This document shows positions 4,625-21,084 of a stretch of DNA of 40,863 nt, in pieces. The notes under the pieces are model-generated. The model made no database searches. It was not told the origin of the DNA and saw nothing but the letters and a program-made list of their open reading frames with translations. The translations under genes and the position numbers were made by a program. Source of the DNA: Cytophagales bacterium (GTDB taxonomy: Bacteria; Bacteroidota; Bacteroidia; Cytophagales; JAHDFW01); NCBI GenBank assembly GCA_020627945.1, contig JAHDFW010000011.1, positions 1-40,863 on the forward strand, written 5' to 3'. The first letter of the stretch is position 1; each line of letters starts with the position of its first letter.

Positions 4625-4647
4625 AACAATTGAGCAGATCAATTGTT
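4625..4647. promoter_or_regulatory. Second inverted repeat about 50 nt upstream of the giant gene start
   Basis: AACAATTGA-GCAGA-TCAATTGTT, perfect 9-bp arms. Confidence 0.4.
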
Positions 4648-4696
4648 TAATGATCAATCAATTATGTTATTTTTGATATTCGGAAAAATGTTATCT

Positions 4697-7600
4697 ATGA
4701 AATATAATCGCGCAAATTCGTTGTTAAAATTAGGAGTGGCAATCTGCTGTTCTCTTTTTTCATTTCAAACCTATGCTCAGTTAACAGTACAGAGTGGATT
4801 TACGGCTCAACAGCTAGCTGAAAATTTAGCAGGAGAAAATATAACCATAACTAATGCTACCATTACAGGTGTGACAAATCAGCATGGTCAATTTTCTTGG
4901 TCAGGCAACGGATTTGATCTCAATTCGGGAATTATGCTGTCCACCGGTGATATCGTTGATGCGATAGGCCCTAATACTGGTACTGGAACTAGTACTGGAT
5001 TTGGACAGCCGGGTGAACCTTTACTAGATTCGCTTTCGGGACAAACCACCTTTGACGCGGTTGTTCTTGAATTTGACTTTGAGGTTCAATCAGATTATAT
5101 AGAATTTCAGTACATTTTTGCTTCCGAAGAATATAATGAGTGGGTTGGAAGCCCATACAATGATGCGTTTGCCTTTTTTATCAGTGGTCCTGGTATTGTA
5201 GGAGAAGAAAATTTAGCAGTTGTACCTAGTACATCTGACGCGATTACGATAAATAATATTAACAATGATAGCTACTGGCAGTACTATGTAGACAACGCAT
5301 CAGGTGGTACAAATATAGAGTTTGACGGTTATACCATTGAGATGACTGCAGCAAAAGGGAACCTAATCCCTTGTAATACTTACCATTTGAAACTTATGAT
5401 TGCAGATGGTTCTGATGACATTTTAGATGCAGCGGTATTTTTGAAAGAGAATTCTTTATTGCAAAGAGTACTTTCTGCAAGTCTTAACACACCAACCGTA
5501 GATGGTACAGCATTAGAAGGATGTATCAAAGCGAGTTTTACATTTAACCTTGATTCAGCTGCTTCTGAGGATATATTGGTTCCAATAGAAGTTTCGGGTA
5601 ATGCTACCAACGGTGTAGATTATGCTTTTATTGATAGTTTATTCATAATTCCAGCAGGTCAAACTTCGGCTTCCATAATTGTTGATGCATTGGCAGATGG
5701 TCTTCCAGAAGGACAAGAAGAAGTGGTAATAGCGTACCAACCACAACCATGTGCACCATGGGATACAGTTATATTATTGATTGATGATGCTCAACCCATC
5801 GAATATCAGACCAACGGATTTGATTTAGGCTGTGCTGGAGATACCTCAGGGCAAGTAACCTTAAATGTAACAGGTGGTACTTTCCCTTATTCTATTACAC
5901 TTACAGATACTACTACACTTGAATCTGTCACTTATCTGGATACTGTAATCAACGATTTAAATGCAGGAACATACTACGTAGACATTCAAGATGTGTTTGG
6001 ATGTGCGGGAGAAGATATTGTTTCGGGTGCTATTTATGATGCAGGACCGACTTTTATACCAGATGGAAAAGGTCAGTTTTATGAAACTACGTTGCCGATT
6101 TCTGGTTTTAATGGAGCAACATTACAAAGTGCAGATCAACTGCTTAATGTTTGTGCAGTATTGGAACACTCGTTTATGGGAGAACTTGAAATCTCGTTGA
6201 TTGCTCCAGGTGGACAAACTGTGATTTTGAAAGAACAACCAGGTGGGGCAACTACAAACCTTGGAGAACCTGTTGCAAAGGGACCAGTGGATGCAGTAAA
6301 CCCAGATACTTCTGCGGGAGTAGGATATGAGTATTGTTGGTCTGCCAACGCAACTTTTGGTTTAATTACCGATCCAGCATTCAATGATACATATACTTAT
6401 ACAACTACCGCTGGAGATGTTCAATCCGATAAATATATGCCAGCTGGTTCGTATACACCTTATGAAACTTTTGATAATTTAGTGGGTACACCTCTTGATG
6501 GAGATTGGACCATCAAAGTACAGGATAAAATACCTAATGATAACGGATGGATCTTTAGATGGAGTATTAGTTTAAATGCAGACCAGCCAGATTCTATTAT
6601 TACAATTAATGAACCTGTATTACCTTCAGTAGATGTGGTTACAACATTACCAGATTGTGGTGTGTCAAATGGAGCCATTAATATTACGATGGTAGGAGGT
6701 AATCCTCCTTTTACTTATTCATGGAGTAATGGAGCGAATTCCGAAGACTTAACCAATGTACCTGCAGGTGATTATATATTAAGTTATACAGACGGTACGG
6801 GATGTACTTATGATACTACCATTTTACTTATCAATAATGGTACATTAGCTTCTTCTTTTGTAACAACTGATGAAACCTGCGTTGGAGCAAATGATGGAGA
6901 AATTGATTTAACAATTAATGGAGGTACACTCCCTTACAACATTAGCTGGAGTAATGGAAGCAACCTTGAAGATATTACAAGTTTAGCACCAGGTGACTAC
7001 GTTGCTAATATTACTGATGGAGCAGGATGTGTAGGATTGGTGAATGCTACAGTTAATCCTGCTACTAACATTGTTATTGTTGGAAATGTAACCGATGAAA
7101 CATGCGGTAATGAAAATGGTATCATAGACCTTACGGTAGCAGGTGGAGTAGGTAATTATTCTTACTCTTGGAGTAATGCAGAAACTACTTCAAGGGTTGA
7201 GTTTTTGCAAGCGGGATCATACACCGTAACGGTGCAAGATTCAAATAATTGTAGCTCTAATGCAATGTTTGATGTGGTTAACTTGGTAGGAAACTGTATT
7301 CCAACATGTGATATTGCTATTGGGTCAGAAACGTTAACTAATGAGATTTGCGGAAATGGTTCTGGTTCTATTGTACTTACCGTTACAGGAGGAACTCAAC
7401 CTTATGAGTACTTATGGGACGATGGATTTACTCAAAAAGATCGTTCTAATCTGGCAGCTGGAACTTACTCTCTGACCATAACCGATGCAAATGACTGTCT
7501 GTTTGAGGCAGTTTATGTGATCAACAATGAGACGGGTACGCTTGGTCTTTCTTCTATAATAAGTGATGAGGTCTGTGGAGACGGCACAGGTGCAGTTGAT

Positions 7601-10600
7601 GTAACTGTAACAGGTGGAGCGCTACCTTATTTATATAGTTGGAACACTGGGGATAACACAGAGGATTTAATTAACCTAAATGCTGGTGATTACTCTATTT
7701 CTGTTACGGATGCAAATAACTGTGTAGTCAACGGCGATTATACTGTAGCCAATATTACTGGGTCACTAACACAAACATACGAAAGCGTGTTTGATGAGGT
7801 TTGTGGAGATAGTTCAGGTTCAATTGATATCACCATGACAGGTGGTTTAGGAGCGTTGACATACAGTTGGTCCAATGGAGAAGTTACAGAAGACCTTCGT
7901 GACATTACAAGTGGTGATTATTTCTGTGTAATTACAGATGGATCAGGATGTTCATATACAACACCAACTTATACGGTAAATAACCAAAGCAACGACATGC
8001 TTATCTTCGATATTGATATTTTTGATGAAACATGTTCAAATGGGTTAGGTAGATTGAATGTAGATGTTATTAATGGTACATTGCCATACTCATACTTGTG
8101 GAGTAATGCTGACACAAATCAAGTAGCGGACACTTTAAGTGAGGGTACATATAGTTGTATTATTACTGATTCTAATGGTTGTAGCGTAGAAACAGGAGAC
8201 TTAATTGTATTAAATACTTCTGGTACCTTAAACCTAGATAATATGGTCGTTACCGATGAAATATGCGGTAATGGAACAGGTAGTGTTGATTTAACAATTT
8301 CAGGTGAAGCAGTGCCATATACGTTTCTTTGGAGTAATGGAGCTTCTACCGAAGATCTGACTAACTTAACTGCGGGAACATATACTGCAACGGTAACAGA
8401 TACCAATGGATGTCAATTGAATATTAATGCCGTAGTTGGAAATAATCAGGGAACACTTGCATTACTAAATCAAGTAATTACCGATGAAGTTTGTGGAGAT
8501 AGTAATGGAGCAGTAAATCTTACCATATCAGGAGGTACCTTACCTTATCTTTTCAATTGGGATAATGGAGCAAATACAGAGGACCTAATGAATCTTAAAG
8601 CAGGTACTTTTAATGCAATTATTACAGATGCTTTCGGATGTGAAATTACTACTCAAGCAGTGGTTAATAATCAAACTGGGGACTTAAGTTTAGATAATAC
8701 CGTAATTACTAATGAAGTTTGTGGAAATACAAGTGGAGCTATTGATATAACTATAAGTGGAGGTACATTGCCTTATACCTTTGCATGGAGCAATGGAGCT
8801 AATTCGGAAGATTTGACTGGACTGGTTGCTGGTACTTATTCTTGCGTAATTACAGATGGTTTAGGATGTACTATTAATGTTGGTCCAATAACAATAAATA
8901 ACAGTTCACCAGGATTTACCATAACCTTGGACAGTACGGTAGAAGAAATTTGTGGAAATGGAGCAGGAGCAATCTATGTAACAACAGCAGGTGGAACGTT
9001 ACCTTACACTTTTGCTTGGAGCAGTGGTTCAAATTCAGAAGACCTTATTAACGTAGGAGCTGGGAATTACACTCTTACTGTTACGGATGGAAATGGATGT
9101 TCAACTCAAGCAAACTTTGACGTAATCAACAACGCTGGAACATTTAATCTAGTTAGTTCTATTATTACCAATGAAATTTGTGGAGATGGGTCTGGTGCTA
9201 TTGATATAACAACAGTAGGTGGTAATACACCAATAAGTTATAATTGGACAGGAGCAACTGGAAACTCCGAGGATCAAACAGGTCTGTCGGCTGGTATCTA
9301 TAGTGTTGAAATTACCGATCAAAATGGGTGTGTGCTAAACTCAGGTAACCTTAATGTAATTAACGATCCAGGAACACTTAGTTTAGATAATGTACAAACA
9401 ATCAATGAGCAATGTGCCGATGGAACTGGAAGTGTTAATCTAACCGTTTCAGGAGGAACTGCACCAATTGATTTTGCTTGGAGTAATTCCGATGTTACCG
9501 AAGATATTACTGGACTTTCTGCTGGAATTTATACTTGTGTAATTAGCGATCAAAACGGTTGTACGGTTAACGCAAATGCAGTAGTACAAAATGATCCAGG
9601 AACACTAGTGATTGTGGATGAAGTAATAACTTCAGAAACATGTGATCAAATGAATGGTGGGGTAGACTTAACCGTAGCTGGTGGTATTGCCCCTTATACA
9701 TTTGCTTGGAGTAATGGAGGTAATGGTGAAGATTTGATTAATGTGAGTGGAGGAAACTATAACCTTCTTATCACTGATAATATTGGATGTCAACTTACTT
9801 ATAATACAACTGTACCAACCGCTCCTAATGATTTAGCAATAGTAGGAGCAACTGTAATTGACGAAACTTGTGGTAATGTTGGAGGAGCAGTTTACCTGAA
9901 CGTTAATGGATCGCAAACTCCTATTATGTATAACTGGAGTGATGGAGGTGCAGTAGAAGATAATATTGGTCTTTCGGCTGGACAATACTTCGTGGATATT
10001 ACAGATAATGCAGGGTGTGCCATATCAGACACCTTTGTATTAGACAATGACACTTCTAACTGTAATTTCGTCATGTGTGGTTATACTGGATCTTCATTTG
10101 CGTCAGATACTATTCAAGATTCTGGTGCTGATGGAATCTATGGGCCTAATGAAAACTGTGGTTTCCTTATTAACCCTTTCTGTGCCGATAGTATTACATT
10201 AACATTCTTGGAAATGGATATTGATGCTTTTGGAGATTTTCTAGCGGTATATGATGGAACTAGTAATGCAGATCCGTTGATCGGATTTTATAACGGTACG
10301 TTCATTCCAGGACCAGCTGTAGCAACTAGTGGTTCTATGTATTTGGAGTTTAATTCAGATGGAGGAGTAGAAGGACAAGGGTTTACTGCGGTTTGGAATA
10401 CAACGTTTATTAATGACATTGTTACGGCCAATTTTACAGCCGATAATTTTAATCCAGCGTTTAACGCACCTGTTGCTTTTACGGACTTAAGTACTGGTAA
10501 CCCTACCGAATGGGAATGGGATTTTGGTGATGGAAATACATCTATTATTCAGAACCCTGTGTACAATTTCACTGGAACGGGTAGTTATAATGTAACACTG

Positions 10601-13600
10601 ATTGCATCCAGTTGTTTTATGTCAGACACTATTGTTCAAACGGTTAATGTTCAAGGACCTGGTGTTATTTCGGTGAACCCGACTGCGGTAAATGTAAACT
10701 TACTTTGTGGAGATTCAACTACTGCTCCAATTACTATTACCAACATTGGGACAGGAGACTTGGTAGTTGATGTGCCGGCCTTGGCTACCGTAACAGAGGA
10801 TCAAACGCAAAGCATTACTTTCTCAGGAGTTGACAATGTCTTTAGCTATGCTTTAAGTCCTTCACTTACCACTGTAAACCTAACCGTTACTATAAATGGT
10901 GATTATGATGCAACAACGGAATTTGCTGATCTAATTATTGAAGGTACATTTATCGAAACCATTGTTGATGGAGATGTAAGTAACGGAACCGATATTGTTA
11001 GTTCGTATACGTTCTCTGGAGTTCAATTAGCTACTTGGCTGGCAGATGGACAATTAGATGTTACGGTTGCCAACTCAGCAGCCGTAGACCCTGGAATAGG
11101 TGGTGGATTGGATCTTAATACAGTTGAGGTCGATTATCAAGCTAGTGGTTGGATAAGTGATCCATCGGTACAGAGTACAATATTACCTGGAGATTCTATC
11201 ACGATCTTATTGGACATTAATAGTTCTTCCATTAATGGAGGGGTGTTTAATGAATCAATTGTGATTAACTCGTCAGATACAGGTAATGCTCAGGTTATCG
11301 TTCCGGTAATTTTAACAGTCACTGGAACTCCAACATATGCTTACGGTGGCGGATGTATAGATTATGGAGTAGTATATCAGGGAGTTTCAGTTCTTGATTC
11401 AGCTCTTATTTATAATACAGGCTGTGACACTTTATTTCTAACTAGTATTACAACAGATAATGGTGATTTCACATCAACAGTAAGTTCAATGAGTGTAGCA
11501 CCATATGATAGCGCATATCTTTATGTTACTTTATTAGGAAATACACTAGGTGCAACTGCTGGTAACCTAAACCTTGTAACCAATGATGGAAATTATTCTA
11601 TTTGTTTAAATGCTACCATTCAAAGTCCTCCGATGATTGAGGTTACGCCAAATCCACTAAGTGTAATGCTAGATTGTGGAGATTCGACTACTAGTTCATT
11701 GGTCGTTAAAAACAATGGTGGATCGGATTTAATATTCTCGCCTTATGTAATGGGAGGAGATTTAGTGTCAGACACTATTCAACAATCAATAACTTTCACA
11801 GGACAAACTACAAACTTTGCGTTCTCAGTTCCTTCTTACTTACAAACATTAGATATAGAAGTAACGATTAATGGTGATTACGATGGTGGGACAGAGTCAG
11901 CTTCTTTAGTTATAGAAGGAACCTTGATTGAGACGATGCCAGATGGAAACCCATTTAATGGAACGGATATAGTTAACACATATACTTTTTCTGGAGCACA
12001 GCTTGCTAATTGGATAGCGGATGGAACATTGAACGTTGCGGTCCAAAACTCCGGAGATGTTAATCCAGGAATAGGTGGGCTTGATCTTAATACGGTTTCG
12101 CTTACTTATATGCAGAATGACTGGCTAATTATTTCTAATGCAACGGATACTATCCCTAGTGGAGATTCTATAATTGTCCCAATTGATATTAACGCTTCTA
12201 CTTTAGTTAATGGTGTTTACTTGGATTCAATAGCAGTGGTATCAAATGATCCTATTAATGGAATGGAGGTTGTTCAGGTTGATCTTACGGTCAATGGAAC
12301 GGCGACCTTAAGCGTTTCCGACAGTTGTTTGAATTTTGGAAACCATCTGGTAGGTACTTCGGTAAATGATACTTTAATTATCGATAACTTTGGATGTGAT
12401 ACTTTGTATGTAACTAGTATAATATCGAATGTTGCTGAGTTTGTACCGCAATTTGCAAGTGTAAATATTGCACCTTTTTCAAGTGTGGAACTTCCAGTGA
12501 CATTTAACGCGAATGCACTCGCTACTTACAATGGTCAATTAACGATTCTTTCAAGTGACATTGATACAACCATATGCTTAAGCGGTTCGGGATCCATTCC
12601 TCCTGCAATTAATGTTGTGCCTAATGCGATAAGTACAACTTTAAATTGTGGTGATATTCATGAAGATACTTTAGTAGTTTATAATACAGGTGGGGTAGAT
12701 CTAATAACTCAGTCTATCAATAATGTATTTGTTGATTCAATAGAAACTCAGAATGTACAGTATTTCGCCACAGATGCTTCGACAATATTTAATTTCAACA
12801 TACCTTCTAACGTTAATGAGGTAAGTGTTCAAGTGACCGTTAATGGTGATTTTGATGGAGGTACTGAATTTGCAGATGTGTACGTGGAAGGAACTTTCAT
12901 AGAAACGATTCTTGATGGCAATCCTACAAATGGTACTAACATTACCGCCAACTATGTATTTAATGGAGCGCAATTAGCGGCTTGGCTAGCTGATGGTGTT
13001 TTGAGTATAACTGTAGATAACTCACCAGCAGTTAATCCAAATATTGGCGGATTAGATCAAAAAACTGTTAGTGTTCAATATGCTACAGGATCTTGGTTAT
13101 TATTTACTGAATCTACAGATACAATTGTGGGAGGGGATTCATTATTGATTCCTATTACGATAGACCCATTTGGACTAACTCCAGGAGTTTATCAAGATTC
13201 CATTACCTTCTTAACTAATATAGATGGAGTAGATTCAGTTGTTCAAGTTCCAATAGACTTTACTTTAGTTGGTTCTGTCGCAATGGAACTTTCTGACTCT
13301 TGTTTAACCTTCCCAATAACTGTGGCAGGTGACTCTATTACGGATACCCTTACCATTTCAAATACGGGATGTGATACTTTGTATGTAACAAACATAAATT
13401 CAGATAATGCTGTTTTCTGGTCGGAATTAGGTAGTATAACTGTTCCTCCATTCTCAAATGTGATGGTCCCAATTGGATTCTCACCGAATACAACAGGAAT
13501 GCACAATGGTAACCTAATCATTAACTCAAACGATTACGATACTACGGTTTGTTTGAGTGGAGAAGGTGCACCGGCACCGGTAATAGTTGTAGTGCCAGAT

Positions 13601-16600
13601 ACTATTGATGTAGTTCTGGATTGTAATGACTCAACTCAGGTACCAGTTCAAGTTTACAATACTGGAGGTGTGGATCTGATTTACACACCTACCGATCTTA
13701 CATTTTATGATTCGACTGCAACGAATTTCTTCTTTGTAACCGATGCTACTACGGCTTTCTCATTTGATGGTATTGATCCTAACCTTACCGAAATAGAGAT
13801 GACCGTTACTATAAATGGTGACTATGATGGAGGAACCGAGACCGCTGATATAATCATCGAAGGAACATTTATTCAGACGATTACAACTTCACCTACAAAT
13901 GGAATTGATATTGTAGTAAATCTTACATTGAGTGGTGCTCAATTAGCAGGTTGGATCGCTGATGGAACATTAGATGTTCTAATTGACAATAGCCCAGCTG
14001 TAAACCCTAATATTGGAGCAGGTCAAGATTTCCACACTGTTCAGTTGACTACTGGAGGGGACAATTCTTGGTATGATTACTCAATGGTTACAAATACCAT
14101 TGCTCCAGGTGATTCAGCTTTATTATTAGTTGATCTTAATTCCACAGGTCTAATTGCTGGAAACTATACAACCACCATTGGGTTTGTAAGTAACGATCCA
14201 GTTAATAGTGTGTTGGAGGTACCTGTTAATATGGTAGTAAATGGATTACCAACTATGGACTTCTCAGCTCCTTGTATTCTGTATGCGGATACATATTTGG
14301 GGTTAATGATCACAGATTCTGTTGGGATAATTAACAACGGATGCGATACCTTATTTATCAATAATATCACGTCAAACAATGGTGATTTTGTACCTCAAAC
14401 AACGGTTGTTACACTTGCTCCAGGTGAGTCAACGAACGTGTTAGTGGACTTTACTCCAAGTTCTGTTGGTACGATTACTGGTGATCTTACGTTTAGTTCT
14501 AATATTGGGAATCAGAACGTATGTTTATCTGGAACGTCATTATTACCACCTGAGATAGATTTGACACCAACTCCACTTAACGTAAATGTGACATGTGGAA
14601 GTACAGTTCAAGTTCCGGTTACGGTTAAAAATGTTGGAGGTGGAGAATTAATATTCAATGCGATAAGTGAAGATACGGTTTCGATTATCGATACCAACTT
14701 ATTCTTCATAACAGACGCAACCACAGCATTTAGTTTCACTGGATTAGATCCAAACCTACCTTCAATGGATCTTACCATAACAATTAATGGTGATTTTGAT
14801 GGAGGTACTGAATCGGCTGACTTATATATAGAAGGAGCATACTTTGCACCTCTTCCAGATGGTGGGGTTACCAATGGTATAGATATCGTTAATACATTTA
14901 ACCTTTCTGGAGCGCAACTTACAACATGGTTAGCTGATGGTACACTTGATCTTGAGGTGAATAACACCGCAGCAGTAAATCCTAATATTGGAGCAGGTTT
15001 AGATTATCATATTGCAGAGATTTCTTATGCGAACAGTACTTGGATGTCTCATAGTACAGCTCAAGATACTGTAGTTGCTGGAGATTCTACTCAACTGTTA
15101 GTTACGATTGATGCTTCAAGTTTGATAGCTGGTGTTCATAATGGAAACATTGAATTCCTTTCCAATGACTTGACTGATCCATCTATGATCTTACCTGTTA
15201 ACGTTACGGTTACTGGAGGTCCTGAAATAGATGTGTCAGATTCTTGTATTGTGTTCCCAGACGTTTATATTGGATCATCCCTTAATGATACCTTAACTAT
15301 TCTTAATAATGGTTGTGACACACTGTATGTGACAAATATTGTATCAAATGAGATTCAAATTCAGCCTCAGTTTACAACAGCAACAATAGCTCCTTTCTCT
15401 CAAGTACAATTACCACTTACATTGAATGGACTAATAGTGGGAGCAATCAACGGTAACTTAAGCATCAGTTCTAACGACGTAAATATGGATGTCTGTCTAC
15501 AGGGTAATGTAGTGTTGCCACCAGTGATAGAAGTTACACCAGATACGTTACATGCTATTTTGAATTGTAACGATTCAAGTGAAGTGGATTTAGTAATTAA
15601 GAATATTGGAGGAGCCGATTTGATAACTTCAACTGCGTTAACTACGCCATTCAATTCAATAATTGATACGGTTGAGTTTACGTTAACAAGTCAAAACGTA
15701 TTGTTCGCATTCAATATTGATCCATCAACGGATACGGTTAATCTTACTGTTACAGTTAATGGTGATTACGATGGAACAACGGAGTTCGCTTCAGTATTTA
15801 TTGAAGGAACGGACATGGGTGATATAGGAGTTGGGACTCAACCATACAATTCGGATTTATCGCAATCTTATGTGCTTTTTGGTCCTCAGTTGGCAACATG
15901 GTTAGCTGATGGTGTGCTAAACGTAACTGTTGATAATTCTGCTGCGGTAAATGCGATTGGTAATGATCTGAACATTGTTGAAATTGGTTACCCAGAAGCA
16001 AACTGGTTAACTCAATATTCGGTTGTTTCACAAACCGTTCCGGCTGGAGACAGTTTGGCGGTACCAGTTATGATGAATTCAACAGGTCTTCCTGCAGGAA
16101 TATATAATGCAACAATAGCAGTATCTAGTAATGACCCTGCAAACGGTATCATATCTGTACCTGTAGTAATGGAAATCGTTGATGCGCCGCAGTTGGGTGT
16201 TCCAACAGCATGTGTTGATTTTGGTACAGTGAATTATTCTGGAACTGGAAATGGTTTTGCAACAATTACCAATGATGGTTGTGGCGATTTAACAGTTGCT
16301 AATTTATCCGTTGATAATGCTGAAGTAACAGTAGTTACTCCAACACCTTTTGTGATTCCTGTTGGAGGTAACGCAGTTGTTCAGTTAGCTTATACGCCAA
16401 TAACAAATGGCACACTAACAGGTAACTTGTTAGTTACTTCTAATGGAGGCGATAGTACTATTTGTATTACAGGAGTAGGTGCAGGAGTACCTTCCATTGC
16501 TTCGAACGGAGATACAATCTTTATGTCATTGGATAGTTGTTCATCTACCACGATCTCAGATCTTATTTTATACAATGAAGGTCAAGCCAACCTGATCTAT

Positions 16601-19405
16601 AATTTAGGAGCACCACCAGTTGCATGGTTAGCATATACTGCATCGTCTGGAACAATTGTGGCAGGAGATTCAGTGGTTACCACAATGACTGCTGACGGTT
16701 CAGGGTTGGCAGATGGTATTTATTATGCAAATATATTAGTTACGACTAACGACCCAGCAAACGCAACTTTGGCTGTTGTTGTGAGTTTTGAAGTTGGTAA
16801 TAAACCACTTGTTGCTGTTTCAAATACATGTGTTGATTTCGGAAATACCTATGTAGGTTATTCAGACACCTTATATTATCCAGTACATAACTACGGTTGT
16901 GACATTCTTACAGTAACCAATGTAACTTCTGATAACGGGGATTATACTCCGTTGCAAACTACTGCTACGATTTTAGTTGGAGATACAGCATGGTTACCAG
17001 TGGTATTTGATCCTTCTGTTGCAGGACCGATTAACGGAACCCTAACCGTATTTAATAATGATAAGGATACTACCGTGTGTCTTACAGGAGTAGGAGTGCT
17101 TGCACCTGAAATTCAGTTTAATTACGATACAATTGTAAATGTTAATTGTTCAGACATAGTTCAAAATACTCTTAACATAGGTAATATTGGGCTAGCAGGT
17201 CTTAATTATACAATTACGGAAGGTATGTCGTGGTTATCGATATCACCTACATCTGGTACAGTTGCACCTTCTGGATCAACAGATGTGACATTAACTTTTG
17301 ATGGAACTGGACTTATTCCTGGTAGTTACAGTGGATGGTTTACGATAACTTCAGACGATCCTTCAGATCCAGTACTAAATTTACCACTGGTTTTAGTATA
17401 TACTGAAACCAGTGATGCGAGTGTGTCTGATAGTTGCATTGATCTAGGAATAGTTGCCTTTGGTAATACTGCATCTGGTTCTACAATGTTATATAACACA
17501 GGGTGTACTGTACTTGATGTAACCAATATTACATCGGACAACCCTAATATTAATGTGACCACTAGTACTAACTTCTCACTTATGCCAGGAGATAGTTCAT
17601 TGGTAACGGTAAGTTATATGCCTGATTCCAATGGAATTCTTAATGGAAACATTCTAATCGAGAATAATGGAATGGACCAATTGGTTTGTGTAACGGCGGT
17701 TGGTACTGGAGTACCTGGTGTTACATTGTCTAACGATACTGTGGTAGCAGGAGTTGACAGTTGTAATAATATTACAACTTCTTCACTTACTTTATCGAAT
17801 ACAGGTGAGGGTACAATGACTTATACGCCATTAGCTTCGAATTATTCATGGTTAAGTTTTGCAACTGCTTCGGGTAATGTTACCGCTGGTAATAATGCTG
17901 TGCTACCATTGAATTTTGATGCGACCGGATTAACTCAAGGAACGTACTACGGTGAAATAAACTTGCTAACAAACGATCCGTTGAATGACACAATCACCGC
18001 AACAGTTCAATTTAATGTTGATAGAATTGCTGAGGTTATCGTACAAACTGAATGTGTCGTGTTTGATACGGTTCCACTTGGAAATACAGGTAATTCACAA
18101 ATGTGGATTTCGAACGCTGGTTGTGATACTCTGTTTGTAAATAACATTACTTCGTCGGATGTAACAGTTAGTGCAACTCAAACTAACTTCTTTATTCTAC
18201 CGGGTGATACAGCGTTTGTGCCTGTGACGTTCACGCCATCTGTAACAGGTGCTGTGAATGGTCAGTTCACCATAAACAATAGTGATATGACCACTACAAT
18301 TTGTTTTGAGGGATATGCAATTCTTGGTGCTCAATTTGGAGCTAACACTGATACTCTGAATTTTGCTGTTGATAACTGTGTCAATGAATTGGATTCTGAT
18401 ACTATTGTTATGAGTAATTCAGGAGCTGTTGATTTGACTTATTCGGTGGATCAAACAGCGTTATCCTCTTGGGTTACTGTATCTCCACTTATGGGAACAA
18501 TAGGAGGCTCTATGAGTGAAAATTTAGTAGTTGATGTAGATGGTACTGGACTACCTACGGGTCTTTATATAGATACTATTATGATATTAACTAATGATAT
18601 CAGCCAACCAATGGTGAGTATCCCAGTTTATTTTGATGTGGTGAATGAGGTTTGCGGCGACTTTGATTATGTGACTCAATTCTGCAATGGAACAGTAACA
18701 TTTACTGATCTTTCAGGTAATAGTCCAGATAGCTGGAATTGGGACTTTGGAGATGGTAATACATCAACTCAACAAAATCCAGTACATACGTACTTGACTT
18801 CAGGAACGTTCAATGTAACTCTGATAGCGTGTAACGGTTCTGCTTGTGATACAATAATTAAATCAGTTACTGTATCGTTCGTAGATGCAGCTTTCACAAT
18901 GAGTGCAGATACGGTTAATATTGGAGAAGATTTAGTATTGTTGGATGCTTCAACAGGAGCTACATCTTGGTTCTGGGATTTTGGAAATGGATCTACAACC
19001 AATGTTAGAAATGCAATTACATCGTATGGTGCTAGTGGAGATTATAAAATATTCCTAGAAGTAAGCAATGGTTCATGCAACGATTTTGCAGATGGTGTAG
19101 TTTATGTACGTCCTAAGCAAACGGGTATTTTAGATGATCGATTGGTTGACTTAAGTATAGCGCCAAACCCATATCGAGGTAAAACTAAAATTCAATTAAC
19201 GTTAGCAAACATGGCTCATGTTAAGATGAAAGTTTATAACACATTAGGTGAAGAGGTTGCAACACTTTGCGACGAGAAATTGCCGTCGAACACACATCAA
19301 TTTGAGTTCTCCGCTATGGAAATAGGAGCGGCTCAAGGAATGTATTATCTACAAGTGGATATAGATGGTAAAGTAAGCAACTACAAACTGATAGAAAAGC
19401 GTTAA
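4697..19405 (+). CDS. Giant multidomain secreted surface protein (about 4900 aa) with T9SS type A sorting domain
   Basis: Track ORF starts at 4643; the ATG at 4697 gives a clean signal peptide (MKYNRANSLLKLGVAICCSLFSFQTYAQ). Choice-of-anchor L-like, P-domain, SprB repeats, CUB, PKD, ASH-like modules, C-terminal SIAPNPYRGKTKIQL...YYLQVDIDGKVSNYKLIEKR. Confidence 0.93.
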   Translation: MKYNRANSLLKLGVAICCSLFSFQTYAQLTVQSGFTAQQLAENLAGENITITNATITGVTNQHGQFSWSGNGFDLNSGIMLSTGDIVDAIGPNTGTGTSTGFGQPGEPLLDSLSGQTTFDAVVLEFDFEVQSDYIEFQYIFASEEYNEWVGSPYNDAFAFFISGPGIVGEENLAVVPSTSDAITINNINNDSYWQYYVDNASGGTNIEFDGYTIEMTAAKGNLIPCNTYHLKLMIADGSDDILDAAVFLKENSLLQRVLSASLNTPTVDGTALEGCIKASFTFNLDSAASEDILVPIEVSGNATNGVDYAFIDSLFIIPAGQTSASIIVDALADGLPEGQEEVVIAYQPQPCAPWDTVILLIDDAQPIEYQTNGFDLGCAGDTSGQVTLNVTGGTFPYSITLTDTTTLESVTYLDTVINDLNAGTYYVDIQDVFGCAGEDIVSGAIYDAGPTFIPDGKGQFYETTLPISGFNGATLQSADQLLNVCAVLEHSFMGELEISLIAPGGQTVILKEQPGGATTNLGEPVAKGPVDAVNPDTSAGVGYEYCWSANATFGLITDPAFNDTYTYTTTAGDVQSDKYMPAGSYTPYETFDNLVGTPLDGDWTIKVQDKIPNDNGWIFRWSISLNADQPDSIITINEPVLPSVDVVTTLPDCGVSNGAINITMVGGNPPFTYSWSNGANSEDLTNVPAGDYILSYTDGTGCTYDTTILLINNGTLASSFVTTDETCVGANDGEIDLTINGGTLPYNISWSNGSNLEDITSLAPGDYVANITDGAGCVGLVNATVNPATNIVIVGNVTDETCGNENGIIDLTVAGGVGNYSYSWSNAETTSRVEFLQAGSYTVTVQDSNNCSSNAMFDVVNLVGNCIPTCDIAIGSETLTNEICGNGSGSIVLTVTGGTQPYEYLWDDGFTQKDRSNLAAGTYSLTITDANDCLFEAVYVINNETGTLGLSSIISDEVCGDGTGAVDVTVTGGALPYLYSWNTGDNTEDLINLNAGDYSISVTDANNCVVNGDYTVANITGSLTQTYESVFDEVCGDSSGSIDITMTGGLGALTYSWSNGEVTEDLRDITSGDYFCVITDGSGCSYTTPTYTVNNQSNDMLIFDIDIFDETCSNGLGRLNVDVINGTLPYSYLWSNADTNQVADTLSEGTYSCIITDSNGCSVETGDLIVLNTSGTLNLDNMVVTDEICGNGTGSVDLTISGEAVPYTFLWSNGASTEDLTNLTAGTYTATVTDTNGCQLNINAVVGNNQGTLALLNQVITDEVCGDSNGAVNLTISGGTLPYLFNWDNGANTEDLMNLKAGTFNAIITDAFGCEITTQAVVNNQTGDLSLDNTVITNEVCGNTSGAIDITISGGTLPYTFAWSNGANSEDLTGLVAGTYSCVITDGLGCTINVGPITINNSSPGFTITLDSTVEEICGNGAGAIYVTTAGGTLPYTFAWSSGSNSEDLINVGAGNYTLTVTDGNGCSTQANFDVINNAGTFNLVSSIITNEICGDGSGAIDITTVGGNTPISYNWTGATGNSEDQTGLSAGIYSVEITDQNGCVLNSGNLNVINDPGTLSLDNVQTINEQCADGTGSVNLTVSGGTAPIDFAWSNSDVTEDITGLSAGIYTCVISDQNGCTVNANAVVQNDPGTLVIVDEVITSETCDQMNGGVDLTVAGGIAPYTFAWSNGGNGEDLINVSGGNYNLLITDNIGCQLTYNTTVPTAPNDLAIVGATVIDETCGNVGGAVYLNVNGSQTPIMYNWSDGGAVEDNIGLSAGQYFVDITDNAGCAISDTFVLDNDTSNCNFVMCGYTGSSFASDTIQDSGADGIYGPNENCGFLINPFCADSITLTFLEMDIDAFGDFLAVYDGTSNADPLIGFYNGTFIPGPAVATSGSMYLEFNSDGGVEGQGFTAVWNTTFINDIVTANFTADNFNPAFNAPVAFTDLSTGNPTEWEWDFGDGNTSIIQNPVYNFTGTGSYNVTLIASSCFMSDTIVQTVNVQGPGVISVNPTAVNVNLLCGDSTTAPITITNIGTGDLVVDVPALATVTEDQTQSITFSGVDNVFSYALSPSLTTVNLTVTINGDYDATTEFADLIIEGTFIETIVDGDVSNGTDIVSSYTFSGVQLATWLADGQLDVTVANSAAVDPGIGGGLDLNTVEVDYQASGWISDPSVQSTILPGDSITILLDINSSSINGGVFNESIVINSSDTGNAQVIVPVILTVTGTPTYAYGGGCIDYGVVYQGVSVLDSALIYNTGCDTLFLTSITTDNGDFTSTVSSMSVAPYDSAYLYVTLLGNTLGATAGNLNLVTNDGNYSICLNATIQSPPMIEVTPNPLSVMLDCGDSTTSSLVVKNNGGSDLIFSPYVMGGDLVSDTIQQSITFTGQTTNFAFSVPSYLQTLDIEVTINGDYDGGTESASLVIEGTLIETMPDGNPFNGTDIVNTYTFSGAQLANWIADGTLNVAVQNSGDVNPGIGGLDLNTVSLTYMQNDWLIISNATDTIPSGDSIIVPIDINASTLVNGVYLDSIAVVSNDPINGMEVVQVDLTVNGTATLSVSDSCLNFGNHLVGTSVNDTLIIDNFGCDTLYVTSIISNVAEFVPQFASVNIAPFSSVELPVTFNANALATYNGQLTILSSDIDTTICLSGSGSIPPAINVVPNAISTTLNCGDIHEDTLVVYNTGGVDLITQSINNVFVDSIETQNVQYFATDASTIFNFNIPSNVNEVSVQVTVNGDFDGGTEFADVYVEGTFIETILDGNPTNGTNITANYVFNGAQLAAWLADGVLSITVDNSPAVNPNIGGLDQKTVSVQYATGSWLLFTESTDTIVGGDSLLIPITIDPFGLTPGVYQDSITFLTNIDGVDSVVQVPIDFTLVGSVAMELSDSCLTFPITVAGDSITDTLTISNTGCDTLYVTNINSDNAVFWSELGSITVPPFSNVMVPIGFSPNTTGMHNGNLIINSNDYDTTVCLSGEGAPAPVIVVVPDTIDVVLDCNDSTQVPVQVYNTGGVDLIYTPTDLTFYDSTATNFFFVTDATTAFSFDGIDPNLTEIEMTVTINGDYDGGTETADIIIEGTFIQTITTSPTNGIDIVVNLTLSGAQLAGWIADGTLDVLIDNSPAVNPNIGAGQDFHTVQLTTGGDNSWYDYSMVTNTIAPGDSALLLVDLNSTGLIAGNYTTTIGFVSNDPVNSVLEVPVNMVVNGLPTMDFSAPCILYADTYLGLMITDSVGIINNGCDTLFINNITSNNGDFVPQTTVVTLAPGESTNVLVDFTPSSVGTITGDLTFSSNIGNQNVCLSGTSLLPPEIDLTPTPLNVNVTCGSTVQVPVTVKNVGGGELIFNAISEDTVSIIDTNLFFITDATTAFSFTGLDPNLPSMDLTITINGDFDGGTESADLYIEGAYFAPLPDGGVTNGIDIVNTFNLSGAQLTTWLADGTLDLEVNNTAAVNPNIGAGLDYHIAEISYANSTWMSHSTAQDTVVAGDSTQLLVTIDASSLIAGVHNGNIEFLSNDLTDPSMILPVNVTVTGGPEIDVSDSCIVFPDVYIGSSLNDTLTILNNGCDTLYVTNIVSNEIQIQPQFTTATIAPFSQVQLPLTLNGLIVGAINGNLSISSNDVNMDVCLQGNVVLPPVIEVTPDTLHAILNCNDSSEVDLVIKNIGGADLITSTALTTPFNSIIDTVEFTLTSQNVLFAFNIDPSTDTVNLTVTVNGDYDGTTEFASVFIEGTDMGDIGVGTQPYNSDLSQSYVLFGPQLATWLADGVLNVTVDNSAAVNAIGNDLNIVEIGYPEANWLTQYSVVSQTVPAGDSLAVPVMMNSTGLPAGIYNATIAVSSNDPANGIISVPVVMEIVDAPQLGVPTACVDFGTVNYSGTGNGFATITNDGCGDLTVANLSVDNAEVTVVTPTPFVIPVGGNAVVQLAYTPITNGTLTGNLLVTSNGGDSTICITGVGAGVPSIASNGDTIFMSLDSCSSTTISDLILYNEGQANLIYNLGAPPVAWLAYTASSGTIVAGDSVVTTMTADGSGLADGIYYANILVTTNDPANATLAVVVSFEVGNKPLVAVSNTCVDFGNTYVGYSDTLYYPVHNYGCDILTVTNVTSDNGDYTPLQTTATILVGDTAWLPVVFDPSVAGPINGTLTVFNNDKDTTVCLTGVGVLAPEIQFNYDTIVNVNCSDIVQNTLNIGNIGLAGLNYTITEGMSWLSISPTSGTVAPSGSTDVTLTFDGTGLIPGSYSGWFTITSDDPSDPVLNLPLVLVYTETSDASVSDSCIDLGIVAFGNTASGSTMLYNTGCTVLDVTNITSDNPNINVTTSTNFSLMPGDSSLVTVSYMPDSNGILNGNILIENNGMDQLVCVTAVGTGVPGVTLSNDTVVAGVDSCNNITTSSLTLSNTGEGTMTYTPLASNYSWLSFATASGNVTAGNNAVLPLNFDATGLTQGTYYGEINLLTNDPLNDTITATVQFNVDRIAEVIVQTECVVFDTVPLGNTGNSQMWISNAGCDTLFVNNITSSDVTVSATQTNFFILPGDTAFVPVTFTPSVTGAVNGQFTINNSDMTTTICFEGYAILGAQFGANTDTLNFAVDNCVNELDSDTIVMSNSGAVDLTYSVDQTALSSWVTVSPLMGTIGGSMSENLVVDVDGTGLPTGLYIDTIMILTNDISQPMVSIPVYFDVVNEVCGDFDYVTQFCNGTVTFTDLSGNSPDSWNWDFGDGNTSTQQNPVHTYLTSGTFNVTLIACNGSACDTIIKSVTVSFVDAAFTMSADTVNIGEDLVLLDASTGATSWFWDFGNGSTTNVRNAITSYGASGDYKIFLEVSNGSCNDFADGVVYVRPKQTGILDDRLVDLSIAPNPYRGKTKIQLTLANMAHVKMKVYNTLGEEVATLCDEKLPSNTHQFEFSAMEIGAAQGMYYLQVDIDGKVSNYKLIEKR
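4778..5460 (+). other. Choice-of-anchor L-like domain within the giant protein
   Basis: LAENLAGENITITNATITG...GIMLSTGDI...FDFEVQSDYIEFQYIFASEEYNEWVGSPYNDAFAFFISGPGI. Confidence 0.75.
6040..6580 (+). other. Proprotein-convertase P-like domain within the giant protein
   Basis: LLNVCAVLEHSFMGELEISLIAPGGQTVIL...LVGTPLDGDWTIKVQDKIPNDNGWIFRWSISL. Confidence 0.7.
6620..10040 (+). repeat. 15 tandem SprB-type repeats (about 76 aa each)
   Basis: Recurring TDE(T/I/V)CGxxxGxxxLTVxGGTxPYxxxWSNGxxxEDLxxLxAGxYxxxITDxxGC. Cys codons of the ExCG motif at 6656, 6878, 7103, 7349, 7574, 7802, 8033, 8264, 8492, 8720, 8951, 9179, 9413, 9641, 9869. Confidence 0.9.
10076..10392 (+). other. CUB-like domain within the giant protein
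   Basis: CGYTGSSFASDTIQDSGADGIYGPNENCGFLINPFCADSITLTFLEMDIDAFGDFLAVYDGTSNADPLIGFYNG...MYLEFNSDGGVEGQGFTAVWN. Confidence 0.75.
10430..10660 (+). other. PKD domain within the giant protein
   Basis: VAFTDLSTGNPTEWEWDFGDGNTSIIQNPVYNFTGTGSYNVTLIAS. Confidence 0.85.
10665..16490 (+). repeat. Six long tandem modules (about 324 aa): ASH-like + T(I/V)NGD(Y/F)D beta domain + ASH-like
   Basis: The core AATGGT(GA) of the NGD(Y/F)D motif recurs at 10895, 11870, 12842, 13814, 14786, 15758, giving intervals of 975, 972, 972, 972, 972 nt. Confidence 0.9.
16493..18655 (+). repeat. About 3.5 short tandem modules (about 204 aa), same framework without the NGD(Y/F)D insert
   Basis: Equivalent N-terminal Cys codons at 16538, 17147, 17762, 18377 (609, 615, 615 nt); shared GxYxxxIxxxSNDP, DSCxxFG, GCDTLxVxNI motifs. 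Confidence 0.85.
18658..19110 (+). other. Two C-terminal PKD domains within the giant protein
   Basis: VTFTDLSGNSPDSWNWDFGDGNTSTQQNPVHTYLTSGTFNVTLIAC and LVLLDASTGATSWFWDFGNGSTTNVRNAITSYGASGDYKIFLEVSNG. Confidence 0.85.
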
Positions 19406-19638: not shown

Positions 19639-19926
19639 TTATTGATCAACCTTACTCCACTGTTTATTTTCGAAAACATAATAGGCTTCCTGTTCGTTTG
19701 ACGAGACTACACTCTTAAGAGAAGGATGCAATTGTAAAACCTTAGACATTTCTTCAATTAAAAAGGAATCCTGATCATCTAACTCTTTATCGGTTTCATT
19801 TCCTGAAAGGATAGTCCAACCACTGTCGTCTTCAGCTTCAGGAGCTTCTTTATAGGCAAGTGTTGGAACTTCGTTACCTTCCAATACACGTGTGCTAACG
19901 ATTACATAAGACTCGAAGATACTCAT
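19639..19926 (-). CDS. DUF2185 / Imm33-like small protein
   Basis: 95 aa; YVIVSTRVLEGNEVPTLAYKEAPEAEDDSGWTILSGNETDKELDDQDS resembles the DUF2185 pattern (V.eG..v..lyRe.p....DSGW.f.sGdE.de). ATG lies 2 bp after the stop of the nuclease gene. Confidence 0.7.
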   Translation of the reverse strand: MSIFESYVIVSTRVLEGNEVPTLAYKEAPEAEDDSGWTILSGNETDKELDDQDSFLIEEMSKVLQLHPSLKSVVSSNEQEAYYVFENKQWSKVDQ

Positions 19927-19928
19927 GA

Positions 19929-20990
19929 CTATTGGATTATAATTTTTTTAGAAGTCGCTCCAATTTTAGCAACGTATAATCCAGATCCAAAATTAGATAA
20001 ATTGATACTTACATTGCTGTTATAGATAGTTTCGGACATTATTTCTTGTCCCTGCAGATTGTACACAACCAGCTGTTCATTGGCCTGTCCATTAAGCATC
20101 TTAACACTTAAAGTGTTTTCATAAAAGTTTAGAGTAACCGATTCTTTAAGTTCCTCAATACCCATAGGAGGTGGGGGTGGAGGAGTTACTCCTTTCCAAA
20201 GAAAATCAACATACTCTGGATGATCTATAAAAGGATTTCTATTTTTCTGAACTACGTAAATTGCATCATTACGCATTCTTTCTTTTTGGTCTACCGTGTC
20301 TGCATCATGCCATTCGATAAGCATATCTAATGCCCAACTAGATAAAGTGTCTCCTGAGAACATAGGGCTGTTCCAACTCGAAATATTATTCTTGTAACGG
20401 GTAATAACATAGAAATATGTTCTTGCAAGATCTCCCTTATACTCATCAATTGGTTCGAATACGGTTCCTGAGTAACCAGGGTAATTACAATCACCAAGTT
20501 TACTTCCGTTTGTACTTGTCCAATCCGTAGTTCCTACTTCCCCATAGGGATGATTAGATCTTTTACCATTGACAAATCCATCGGTTGGATAAACGTGAAA
20601 TAGATCAGTATACATTGGGCCGCTTCCTCCAAACCAATTTTGCGGCACGCTATGCTCACGGTTGTAGCAATCACCTTCTTGACTGTATTGCCCACATTGA
20701 TCAGTGGAATACGTGTATATATACGAAGGTTGAGTGCCAGGTGTGTTGGAGTATATGTCTATGATTTTTCCAGAAGCATTTTTGTCAGTTCTGTTGAACC
20801 AATACCAAACGTCATCATAACTAATTACCGTATGTCCTGAAATTATACCGCTTAAAGCTGTTCTTAATTCTTCCCCACCTTTACCAGCAGCATTAGCGTA
20901 ATACCCTTGTGGGATTTGTGCTAAACTGATTGTGGCGCTAGCTAACAATGTTCCAACTCCGATTACTATTCCTTTTATATTCCTCATCAT
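19929..20990 (-). CDS. Endonuclease I (EndA-like) family secreted nuclease with T9SS type A sorting domain
   Basis: Signal peptide; CYNREHSVPQNWFGG...DLFHVYPTDGFVNGKRSNHPYGEVG; C-terminal LVVYNLQGQEIMSETIYNSNVSINLSNFGSGLYVAKIGATSKKIIIQ. Confidence 0.88.
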   Translation of the reverse strand: MMRNIKGIVIGVGTLLASATISLAQIPQGYYANAAGKGGEELRTALSGIISGHTVISYDDVWYWFNRTDKNASGKIIDIYSNTPGTQPSYIYTYSTDQCGQYSQEGDCYNREHSVPQNWFGGSGPMYTDLFHVYPTDGFVNGKRSNHPYGEVGTTDWTSTNGSKLGDCNYPGYSGTVFEPIDEYKGDLARTYFYVITRYKNNISSWNSPMFSGDTLSSWALDMLIEWHDADTVDQKERMRNDAIYVVQKNRNPFIDHPEYVDFLWKGVTPPPPPPMGIEELKESVTLNFYENTLSVKMLNGQANEQLVVYNLQGQEIMSETIYNSNVSINLSNFGSGLYVAKIGATSKKIIIQ

Positions 20991-21058
20991 ATTCCCTCGT
21001 ATATCTAACTGTAAAGATACAATAAAAACTTAATAGGCGAACAAGGCTGAAAGGAAAC

Positions 21059-21084
21059 AAAAAAGCCAACGTAAGTTGGCTTTT
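21059..21084 (-). terminator. Terminator of the mechanosensitive channel gene
   Basis: AAAAGCCAAC-GTAA-GTTGGCTTTT with T run on the minus strand. Confidence 0.75.

What the first reader, a model, noticed from the sequence alone, without database searches (positions are those of the whole stretch)
19639..20990. T9SS-tailed endonuclease I translationally coupled to a DUF2185/Imm33-like gene: candidate effector-immunity pair
Seen in sequence: the nuclease stop (19929-19931) and the ATG of the 95-aa gene (19924-19926) are 2 bp apart on the same strand (TAG-TC-ATG). The nuclease has a signal peptide, an EndA-type REHSVPQNWF motif and a T9SS type A tail. The small protein has no signal peptide and resembles DUF2185, which I recall being linked to Imm33 of polymorphic toxin systems (needs verification). 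Inference: an exported DNase with a cognate cytoplasmic protector, or a DUF2185 protein co-expressed for another reason.
Basis: partly seen in the sequence, partly recalled or inferred. Interest (0 to 1): 0.65.

Follow-up and report, generated by a model that had tools for sequence, protein, structure and literature searches.

The report
Secreted DNase with putative inhibitor gene
This bacterium makes an exported DNA-cutting enzyme whose gene is followed, 2 bases later, by a small gene from a family of nuclease-immunity proteins that probably shields the cell from its own enzyme; no other sampled genome shows this exact pairing, so the link is a good guess rather than a proven system.

Summary
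A 353-aa endonuclease I (PF04231, E=2.5e-82) with a T9SS sorting tail ends 2 bp before a 95-aa gene that passes the Imm33/DUF2185 cut-off (58.3 vs 25.4 bits). The two genes look like their own two-gene transcription unit.

In samples of 391 (order), 396 (phylum) and 355 (class) genomes, and in 57 Imm33 relatives from GTDB genomes, no other EndA lies next to an Imm33. A second T9SS-tailed EndA in the same genome has none.

One further pattern favours the immunity reading. Where Imm33 genes elsewhere are linked to a toxin, that toxin is an HNH/GH-E nuclease (five loci read here; Zhang et al. 2012 list only HNH-fold partners). EndA belongs to the same His-Me-finger superfamily. Most Imm33 genes are nonetheless solitary.

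Best reading: an ordinary T9SS-exported extracellular DNase with an adjacent cytoplasmic Imm33-type inhibitor, working like NucA-NuiA or NucA-Nin (confidence 0.5). Inter-bacterial "effector" status is not supported. Rivals are an unrelated orphan immunity gene, or a DUF2185 housekeeping adaptor.

The parts
19929..20990 (-). T9SS-exported endonuclease I (EndA family), 353 aa: signal peptide, catalytic domain, Pro-rich linker, sorting tail
   Evidence: ORF; PF04231 2.5e-82, PF18962, TIGR04183
20214..20876 (-). Endonuclease_1 catalytic domain (residues 39-259)
   Evidence: PF04231 match
20652..20657 (-). E112-H113 (REHS), equivalent to Vvn Glu79-His80 (metal ligand, general base)
   Evidence: sequence; Vvn residues from PMC5758888
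20568..20570 (-). N141 in VNGKRSN, equivalent to Vvn Asn127 metal ligand
   Evidence: alignment to Vvn/EndA structures
19935..20117 (-). T9SS type A sorting domain (residues 292-352)
   Evidence: PF18962 and TIGR04183 above cut-off
19927..19928 (-). 2-bp junction TAG-TC-ATG between the two genes
19639..19926 (-). Imm33 (DUF2185) family protein, 95 aa, acidic (pI 4.1, net charge -13); putative inhibitor
   Evidence: PF09951 6.8e-16; charge; AlphaFold model pLDDT 88
21013..21044 (-). Bacteroidota-type promoter-like sequence TTG-N22-TATCTTT, about 22 bp before the nuclease start
   Evidence: pattern match (background 0.40 per kb per strand)
21061..21084 (-). intrinsic-terminator-like hairpin ending the upstream MscS-type gene, separating it from the nuclease unit

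Best explanation
A two-gene unit of a Bacteroidota bacterium. Gene 1 encodes an extracellular or surface DNase of the endonuclease I family, exported by Sec then T9SS, most likely for scavenging or clearing extracellular DNA. Gene 2, translated right after it, encodes a cytoplasmic acidic Imm33 protein that most likely binds the His-Me-finger (beta-beta-alpha-metal) active site of nuclease molecules that fold before export or re-enter, protecting the producer's DNA, as NuiA or Nin do for the NucA nucleases. Shown: families, active-site residues, export tail, T9SS core gene in the genome, gene order and spacing. Inferred: co-expression, DNase activity, binding and protection.
For: Family assignments above curated cut-offs. 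SprA, the T9SS translocon, is encoded in the same genome. A T9SS-dependent secreted 'Endonuclease I' is known from R. anatipestifer (PMC6549377). The 2-bp junction lies in an apparently independent unit. Imm33's published toxin partners are Tox-HNH, Tox-DHNNK and NGO1392-like, all HNH/EndoVII fold (PMC3482391). My own survey agrees: Imm33 directly after an HNH nuclease gene (L029, gap 2 bp), after Rhs proteins with GH-E nuclease C-termini (L072 gap 6, L119 gap 7), and in GH-E/ankyrin/DUF2185 clusters of Listeria and Paenibacillus plasmids. EndA/Vvn is also a His-Me-finger nuclease, and nucleases of that superfamily with an adjacent or cognate inhibitor exist (NucA-Nin, NucA-NuiA; PMC5758888).
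Against: The EndA-Imm33 adjacency was found in no other genome. 29 other EndA loci of the order lack it, and the genome's own second T9SS EndA lacks it, so the enzyme class does not need it. Most Imm33 genes are solitary and not beside toxins. Another Imm33 (L078) is equally tightly linked to a DEAD-box helicase. The window protein has lost near-invariant Imm33 residues (R26>K, R38>T). A Sec-exported enzyme crosses the cytoplasm unfolded, so protection may be unnecessary. No binding evidence.
Confidence: 0.5

Rival explanations
1. The Imm33 gene is an orphan (polyimmunity-type) immunity gene against incoming HNH/GH-E nuclease toxins of competitors, and lies behind the nuclease only by chance insertion or operon hitch-hiking; the nuclease is an ordinary DNase.
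For: Most Imm33 genes sampled are not next to a toxin; some sit next to SUKH immunity genes (L007, L011; Vibrio plasmid L137), i.e. polyimmunity contexts as described in PMC3482391. EndA relatives have no Imm33.
Against: A 2-bp junction to a His-Me-finger nuclease specifically is unlikely by chance; gene composition is native (GC 0.375, GC3 0.31, as neighbours); no mobile element or other immunity gene was recognised beside it.
Confidence: 0.28
2. The DUF2185 protein is a cellular adaptor or regulatory protein unrelated to immunity, like P. aeruginosa PA2504 (DUF2314-DUF2185), co-transcribed with the nuclease for no nuclease-related reason.
For: PA2504 is a cytoplasmic dimer found as a partner of RppH, with transcriptome effects and no toxin (PMC8466066). 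Neisseria keeps a solitary DUF2185 gene in a similar place (L063-L071). L078 is linked to a DEAD-box helicase.
Against: Sparse, patchy distribution (5 of 396 genomes in the phylum sample; 28 of 391 in the order sample) and repeated links to HNH/GH-E toxins fit immunity better than a core function.
Confidence: 0.17
3. The pair is a true antibacterial effector-immunity module: the T9SS nuclease kills competitors and Imm33 protects kin.
For: Adjacent immunity-family gene; TANFOR polymorphic toxins of Bacteroidetes are hypothesised T9SS substrates with downstream immunity genes (PMC7073777).
Against: No polymorphic-toxin architecture: the nuclease is a stand-alone enzyme with a sorting tail at the C-terminus and no recognised cell-entry domain; the same enzyme class is widespread without immunity genes.
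Confidence: 0.05

Closest known systems
NucA-Nin (Bacillus) and NucA-NuiA (Anabaena) nuclease-inhibitor pairs
   Same: Non-specific His-Me/beta-beta-alpha-family nuclease with a dedicated small inhibitor; in Bacillus the two genes are adjacent (PMC5758888)
   Different: Nuclease is EndA family with a T9SS tail; the partner is Imm33, with no sequence or detectable fold match to solved proteins; inhibition untested here
Polymorphic toxin systems with Imm33 (Rhs/LXG GH-E or HNH nuclease plus DUF2185; Zhang et al. 2012)
   Same: Imm33 gene directly downstream of a His-Me-finger nuclease gene, gap 2-7 bp in L029, L072, L119
   Different: Those nucleases are toxin domains (Rhs in L072 and L119; HNH-ended protein in L029) and not EndA; here a stand-alone EndA with T9SS sorting tail
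T9SS-secreted endonuclease I (R. anatipestifer AS87_RS02625)
   Same: Endonuclease I annotated with a T9SS tail, about 40 kDa, secretion reduced in a gldM mutant (PMC6549377)
   Different: No Imm33 partner reported in the passage read
PA2504 (DUF2314-DUF2185) of Pseudomonas aeruginosa
   Same: Contains DUF2185; cytoplasmic
   Different: Two-domain protein, partner of RppH, not linked to a DNase

Membership tests
Endonuclease I (PF04231, His-Me finger) | Full-length catalytic domain above curated cut-off | tested here: met
   276.6 bits vs 25; residues 39-259 cover profile 2-235
Endonuclease I (PF04231, His-Me finger) | Glu-His and Asn active-site residues | tested here: met
   E112-H113 by motif and N141 by alignment to EndA structures; Vvn residues from PMC5758888
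Endonuclease I (PF04231, His-Me finger) | DNase activity | not testable with these tools
   needs assay
T9SS type A substrates | C-terminal sorting domain above cut-off | tested here: met
   PF18962 28.8/27; TIGR04183 32/23
T9SS type A substrates | T9SS machinery in the genome | tested here: met
   SprA fragment at contig end, 991 bits
Imm33 (PF09951, DUF2185) | Profile match above curated cut-off | tested here: met
   58.3 vs 25.4 bits, profile 1-86 of 87
Imm33 (PF09951, DUF2185) | Conserved Trp of the family | tested here: met
   W37 invariant with D34, G36, G42, E44; near-invariant R26 and R38 are not kept
Polymorphic toxin-immunity system | Multidomain toxin with delivery part and variable C-terminal toxin domain | tested here: not met
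   stand-alone EndA; C-terminus is the sorting tail
Polymorphic toxin-immunity system | Immunity-family gene directly downstream | tested here: met
   2-bp gap
Polymorphic toxin-immunity system | Recurrent linkage of the two families | tested here: not met
Secreted nuclease with dedicated inhibitor (NucA-NuiA/Nin type) | Partner inhibits the nuclease | not testable with these tools
   needs co-expression or binding assay

The most novel reading that the evidence does not exclude
Imm33 proteins are general inhibitors of the beta-beta-alpha-metal nuclease core, and this bacterium has recruited one as a dedicated inhibitor of a T9SS-exported EndA, giving an EndA-family enzyme with a genetically coupled inhibitor, which I did not find described.
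Probability: 0.33. Interest if true: 0.55.

Novelty: new variant of a known kind. Interest (0 to 1): 0.38.

Why it matters
If true, it would link the poorly understood Imm33/DUF2185 family, whose sampled members are mostly solitary and have no solved structure by sequence or fold search here, to a clear biochemical target: the His-Me-finger nuclease active site. It would also give a small, testable nuclease-inhibitor pair, and suggest that some T9SS cargo enzymes need cytoplasmic protection.

Tried and rejected
Close Imm33 relatives by single-sequence scan of GTDB contigs and IMG/VR: none. No solved structure by sequence or profile or by fold (best E 0.48). Horizontal-acquisition signal in composition: none. 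Tree of 87 Imm33 domains: the window protein is a long branch (2.7) grouping loosely (96/71) with other Bacteroidota, so its placement is uninformative. I first thought that tightly linked Imm33 genes always follow a nuclease; rejected after finding L078 (DEAD-box helicase) and L131/L132 (160-aa protein without Pfam match). Some collection 'plasmid' hits (Neisseria) are chromosome-sized records labelled plasmids; used only as Imm33 examples.

Full report
What is there. On the minus strand, 20990-19929 encodes a 353-aa protein and 19926-19639 a 95-aa protein, joined as TAG-TC-ATG. Pfam gives Endonuclease_1 (PF04231, 2.5e-82) plus a T9SS sorting tail for the first, and Imm33 (PF09951, formerly DUF2185; 6.8e-16, 58.3 bits against a cut-off of 25.4) for the second; NCBIfam confirms the type A tail (TIGR04183). 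The active-site pattern of the family is kept: E112-H113 in NREHSVPQNWF and N141 in VNGKRSN, the latter aligned with EndA structures; the corresponding Vvn residues are Glu79, His80 and Asn127 (PMC5758888). The genome has no other member of its own family among the held relatives; I infer a Cytophagales-like Bacteroidota from the relatives' genes and sizes. It encodes SprA, the T9SS translocon.

Transcription unit. The MscS-type gene upstream ends in a terminator-like hairpin (21084-21061), and a Bacteroidota-type promoter-like sequence lies just before the nuclease (21044-21013; background 0.40 per kb per strand, so only suggestive). No Bacteroidota-type match with both elements lies between the nuclease start and the Imm33 start. 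In this window only 2 of 10 co-directional neighbour pairs are closer than 50 bp, this one and 38188/38198. Base composition of the Imm33 gene equals that of its neighbours. The pair therefore looks like one bicistron, but expression was not observed.

Is the pair conserved? I tested both sides. In 391 genomes of the order, 28 hold an Imm33 (27 above cut-off) and 119 hold a match to the nuclease query, some only to the tail. The listed places of the two fall next to each other only in the window's own genome. The 29 other nuclease loci fetched carry no Imm33 within 1.5 kb. Of 57 Imm33 relatives from GTDB genomes of several phyla, with up to 4 kb on each side, none carries an EndA. Phylum (396) and class (355) samples add 4 and 10 further genomes with Imm33 (one shared), none beside EndA. 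The window's own genome holds a second T9SS-tailed EndA (1174 aa, 52% identity in the catalytic domain) with no Imm33; its downstream neighbour is convergent. So the pairing is, in these samples, unique, and the enzyme class does not require it. The limits are sampling, patterns biased to the DSGW motif, and the absence of close relatives.

What Imm33 genes do elsewhere. Most are solitary. In 84 distinct loci including the window, I found five with an upstream gene within -8 to 12 bp: the window, L029 (HNH nuclease C-terminus, gap 2; its Imm33 match is 23.2 bits, just under cut-off), L072 and L119 (Rhs proteins ending in a GH-E HNH/EndoVII nuclease, gaps 6 and 7), and L078 (DEAD-box helicase, gap 4). 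Among further loci, L131/L132 follow a 160-aa protein without a Pfam match, and plasmids of Listeria and Paenibacillus carry GH-E nuclease, ankyrin protein and DUF2185 in a row. SUKH immunity genes adjoin L007, L011 and a Vibrio plasmid gene. Zhang et al. 2012 list only HNH-fold toxins as Imm33 partners: Tox-HNH, Tox-DHNNK and NGO1392-like (PMC3482391). EndA/Vvn belongs to the His-Me-finger superfamily that includes the HNH colicin nucleases (PMC5758888). So the toxin-type partners of Imm33 and the window nuclease share a catalytic core. It is circumstantial and was noticed after the fact.

Structure. AlphaFold2 with 44 relatives gives a confident alpha/beta model (pLDDT 88, pTM 0.81) with no significant PDB match (none by profile). 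This agrees with the statement for PA2504 that the DUF2185 part may be a new fold (PMC8466066). The protein is acidic (net -13 over 95 aa), but Imm33 domains generally are, so this adds little. It lacks near-invariant R26 and R38 and is a long branch in the tree.

Interpretation. T9SS-exported endonuclease I is a known cargo: R. anatipestifer secretes one, less so in a gldM mutant (PMC6549377). The best-supported mechanism for the pair is self-protection: an exported DNase plus a cytoplasmic inhibitor translated right after it, as for NucA-Nin and NucA-NuiA (PMC5758888). I put this at 0.5. The main rivals are a coincidentally placed orphan immunity gene (0.28) and an adaptor function as in PA2504 (0.17). 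A real antibacterial effector-immunity module is least likely (0.05): no delivery or variable toxin architecture is seen, and to my knowledge T9SS delivers to the surface or medium, not into other cells.

Verdict. Observation confirmed; interpretation partly supported; at most a new variant of a known kind of nuclease-inhibitor pair; moderate interest because it is directly testable with a two-plasmid rescue assay.

Noticed in passing
4643-19405 (+): A single 4920-aa ORF with many tandem repeats and, by eye, a T9SS-like C-terminal tail: a giant surface protein facing the nuclease unit convergently.
   Followed up: no
L029:248-1746: A same-order genome has an HNH nuclease-ended 404-aa protein followed 2 bp later by a divergent Imm33-like gene (23.2 bits, just under cut-off): a likely toxin-immunity pair.
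   Followed up: partly
L129, L131, L132 (loci of one family in the class sample): Imm33 genes closely follow a 160-aa acidic protein without Pfam match; possibly a two-gene immunity or regulatory unit.
   Followed up: partly
L063-L071 (Neisseria): A solitary DUF2185 gene sits in a similar place (near rnc/era-like and ribH-like genes by eye) in several Neisseria species, with no toxin recognised beside it; no gene is listed there in the PLSDB gonococcal records.
   Followed up: no
G000:C79 (L127:1972-5496): The second EndA of the genome is a 1174-aa T9SS protein with Ig-like, lamin-tail-like and repeated 'CGSYTWNG' modules.
   Followed up: partly
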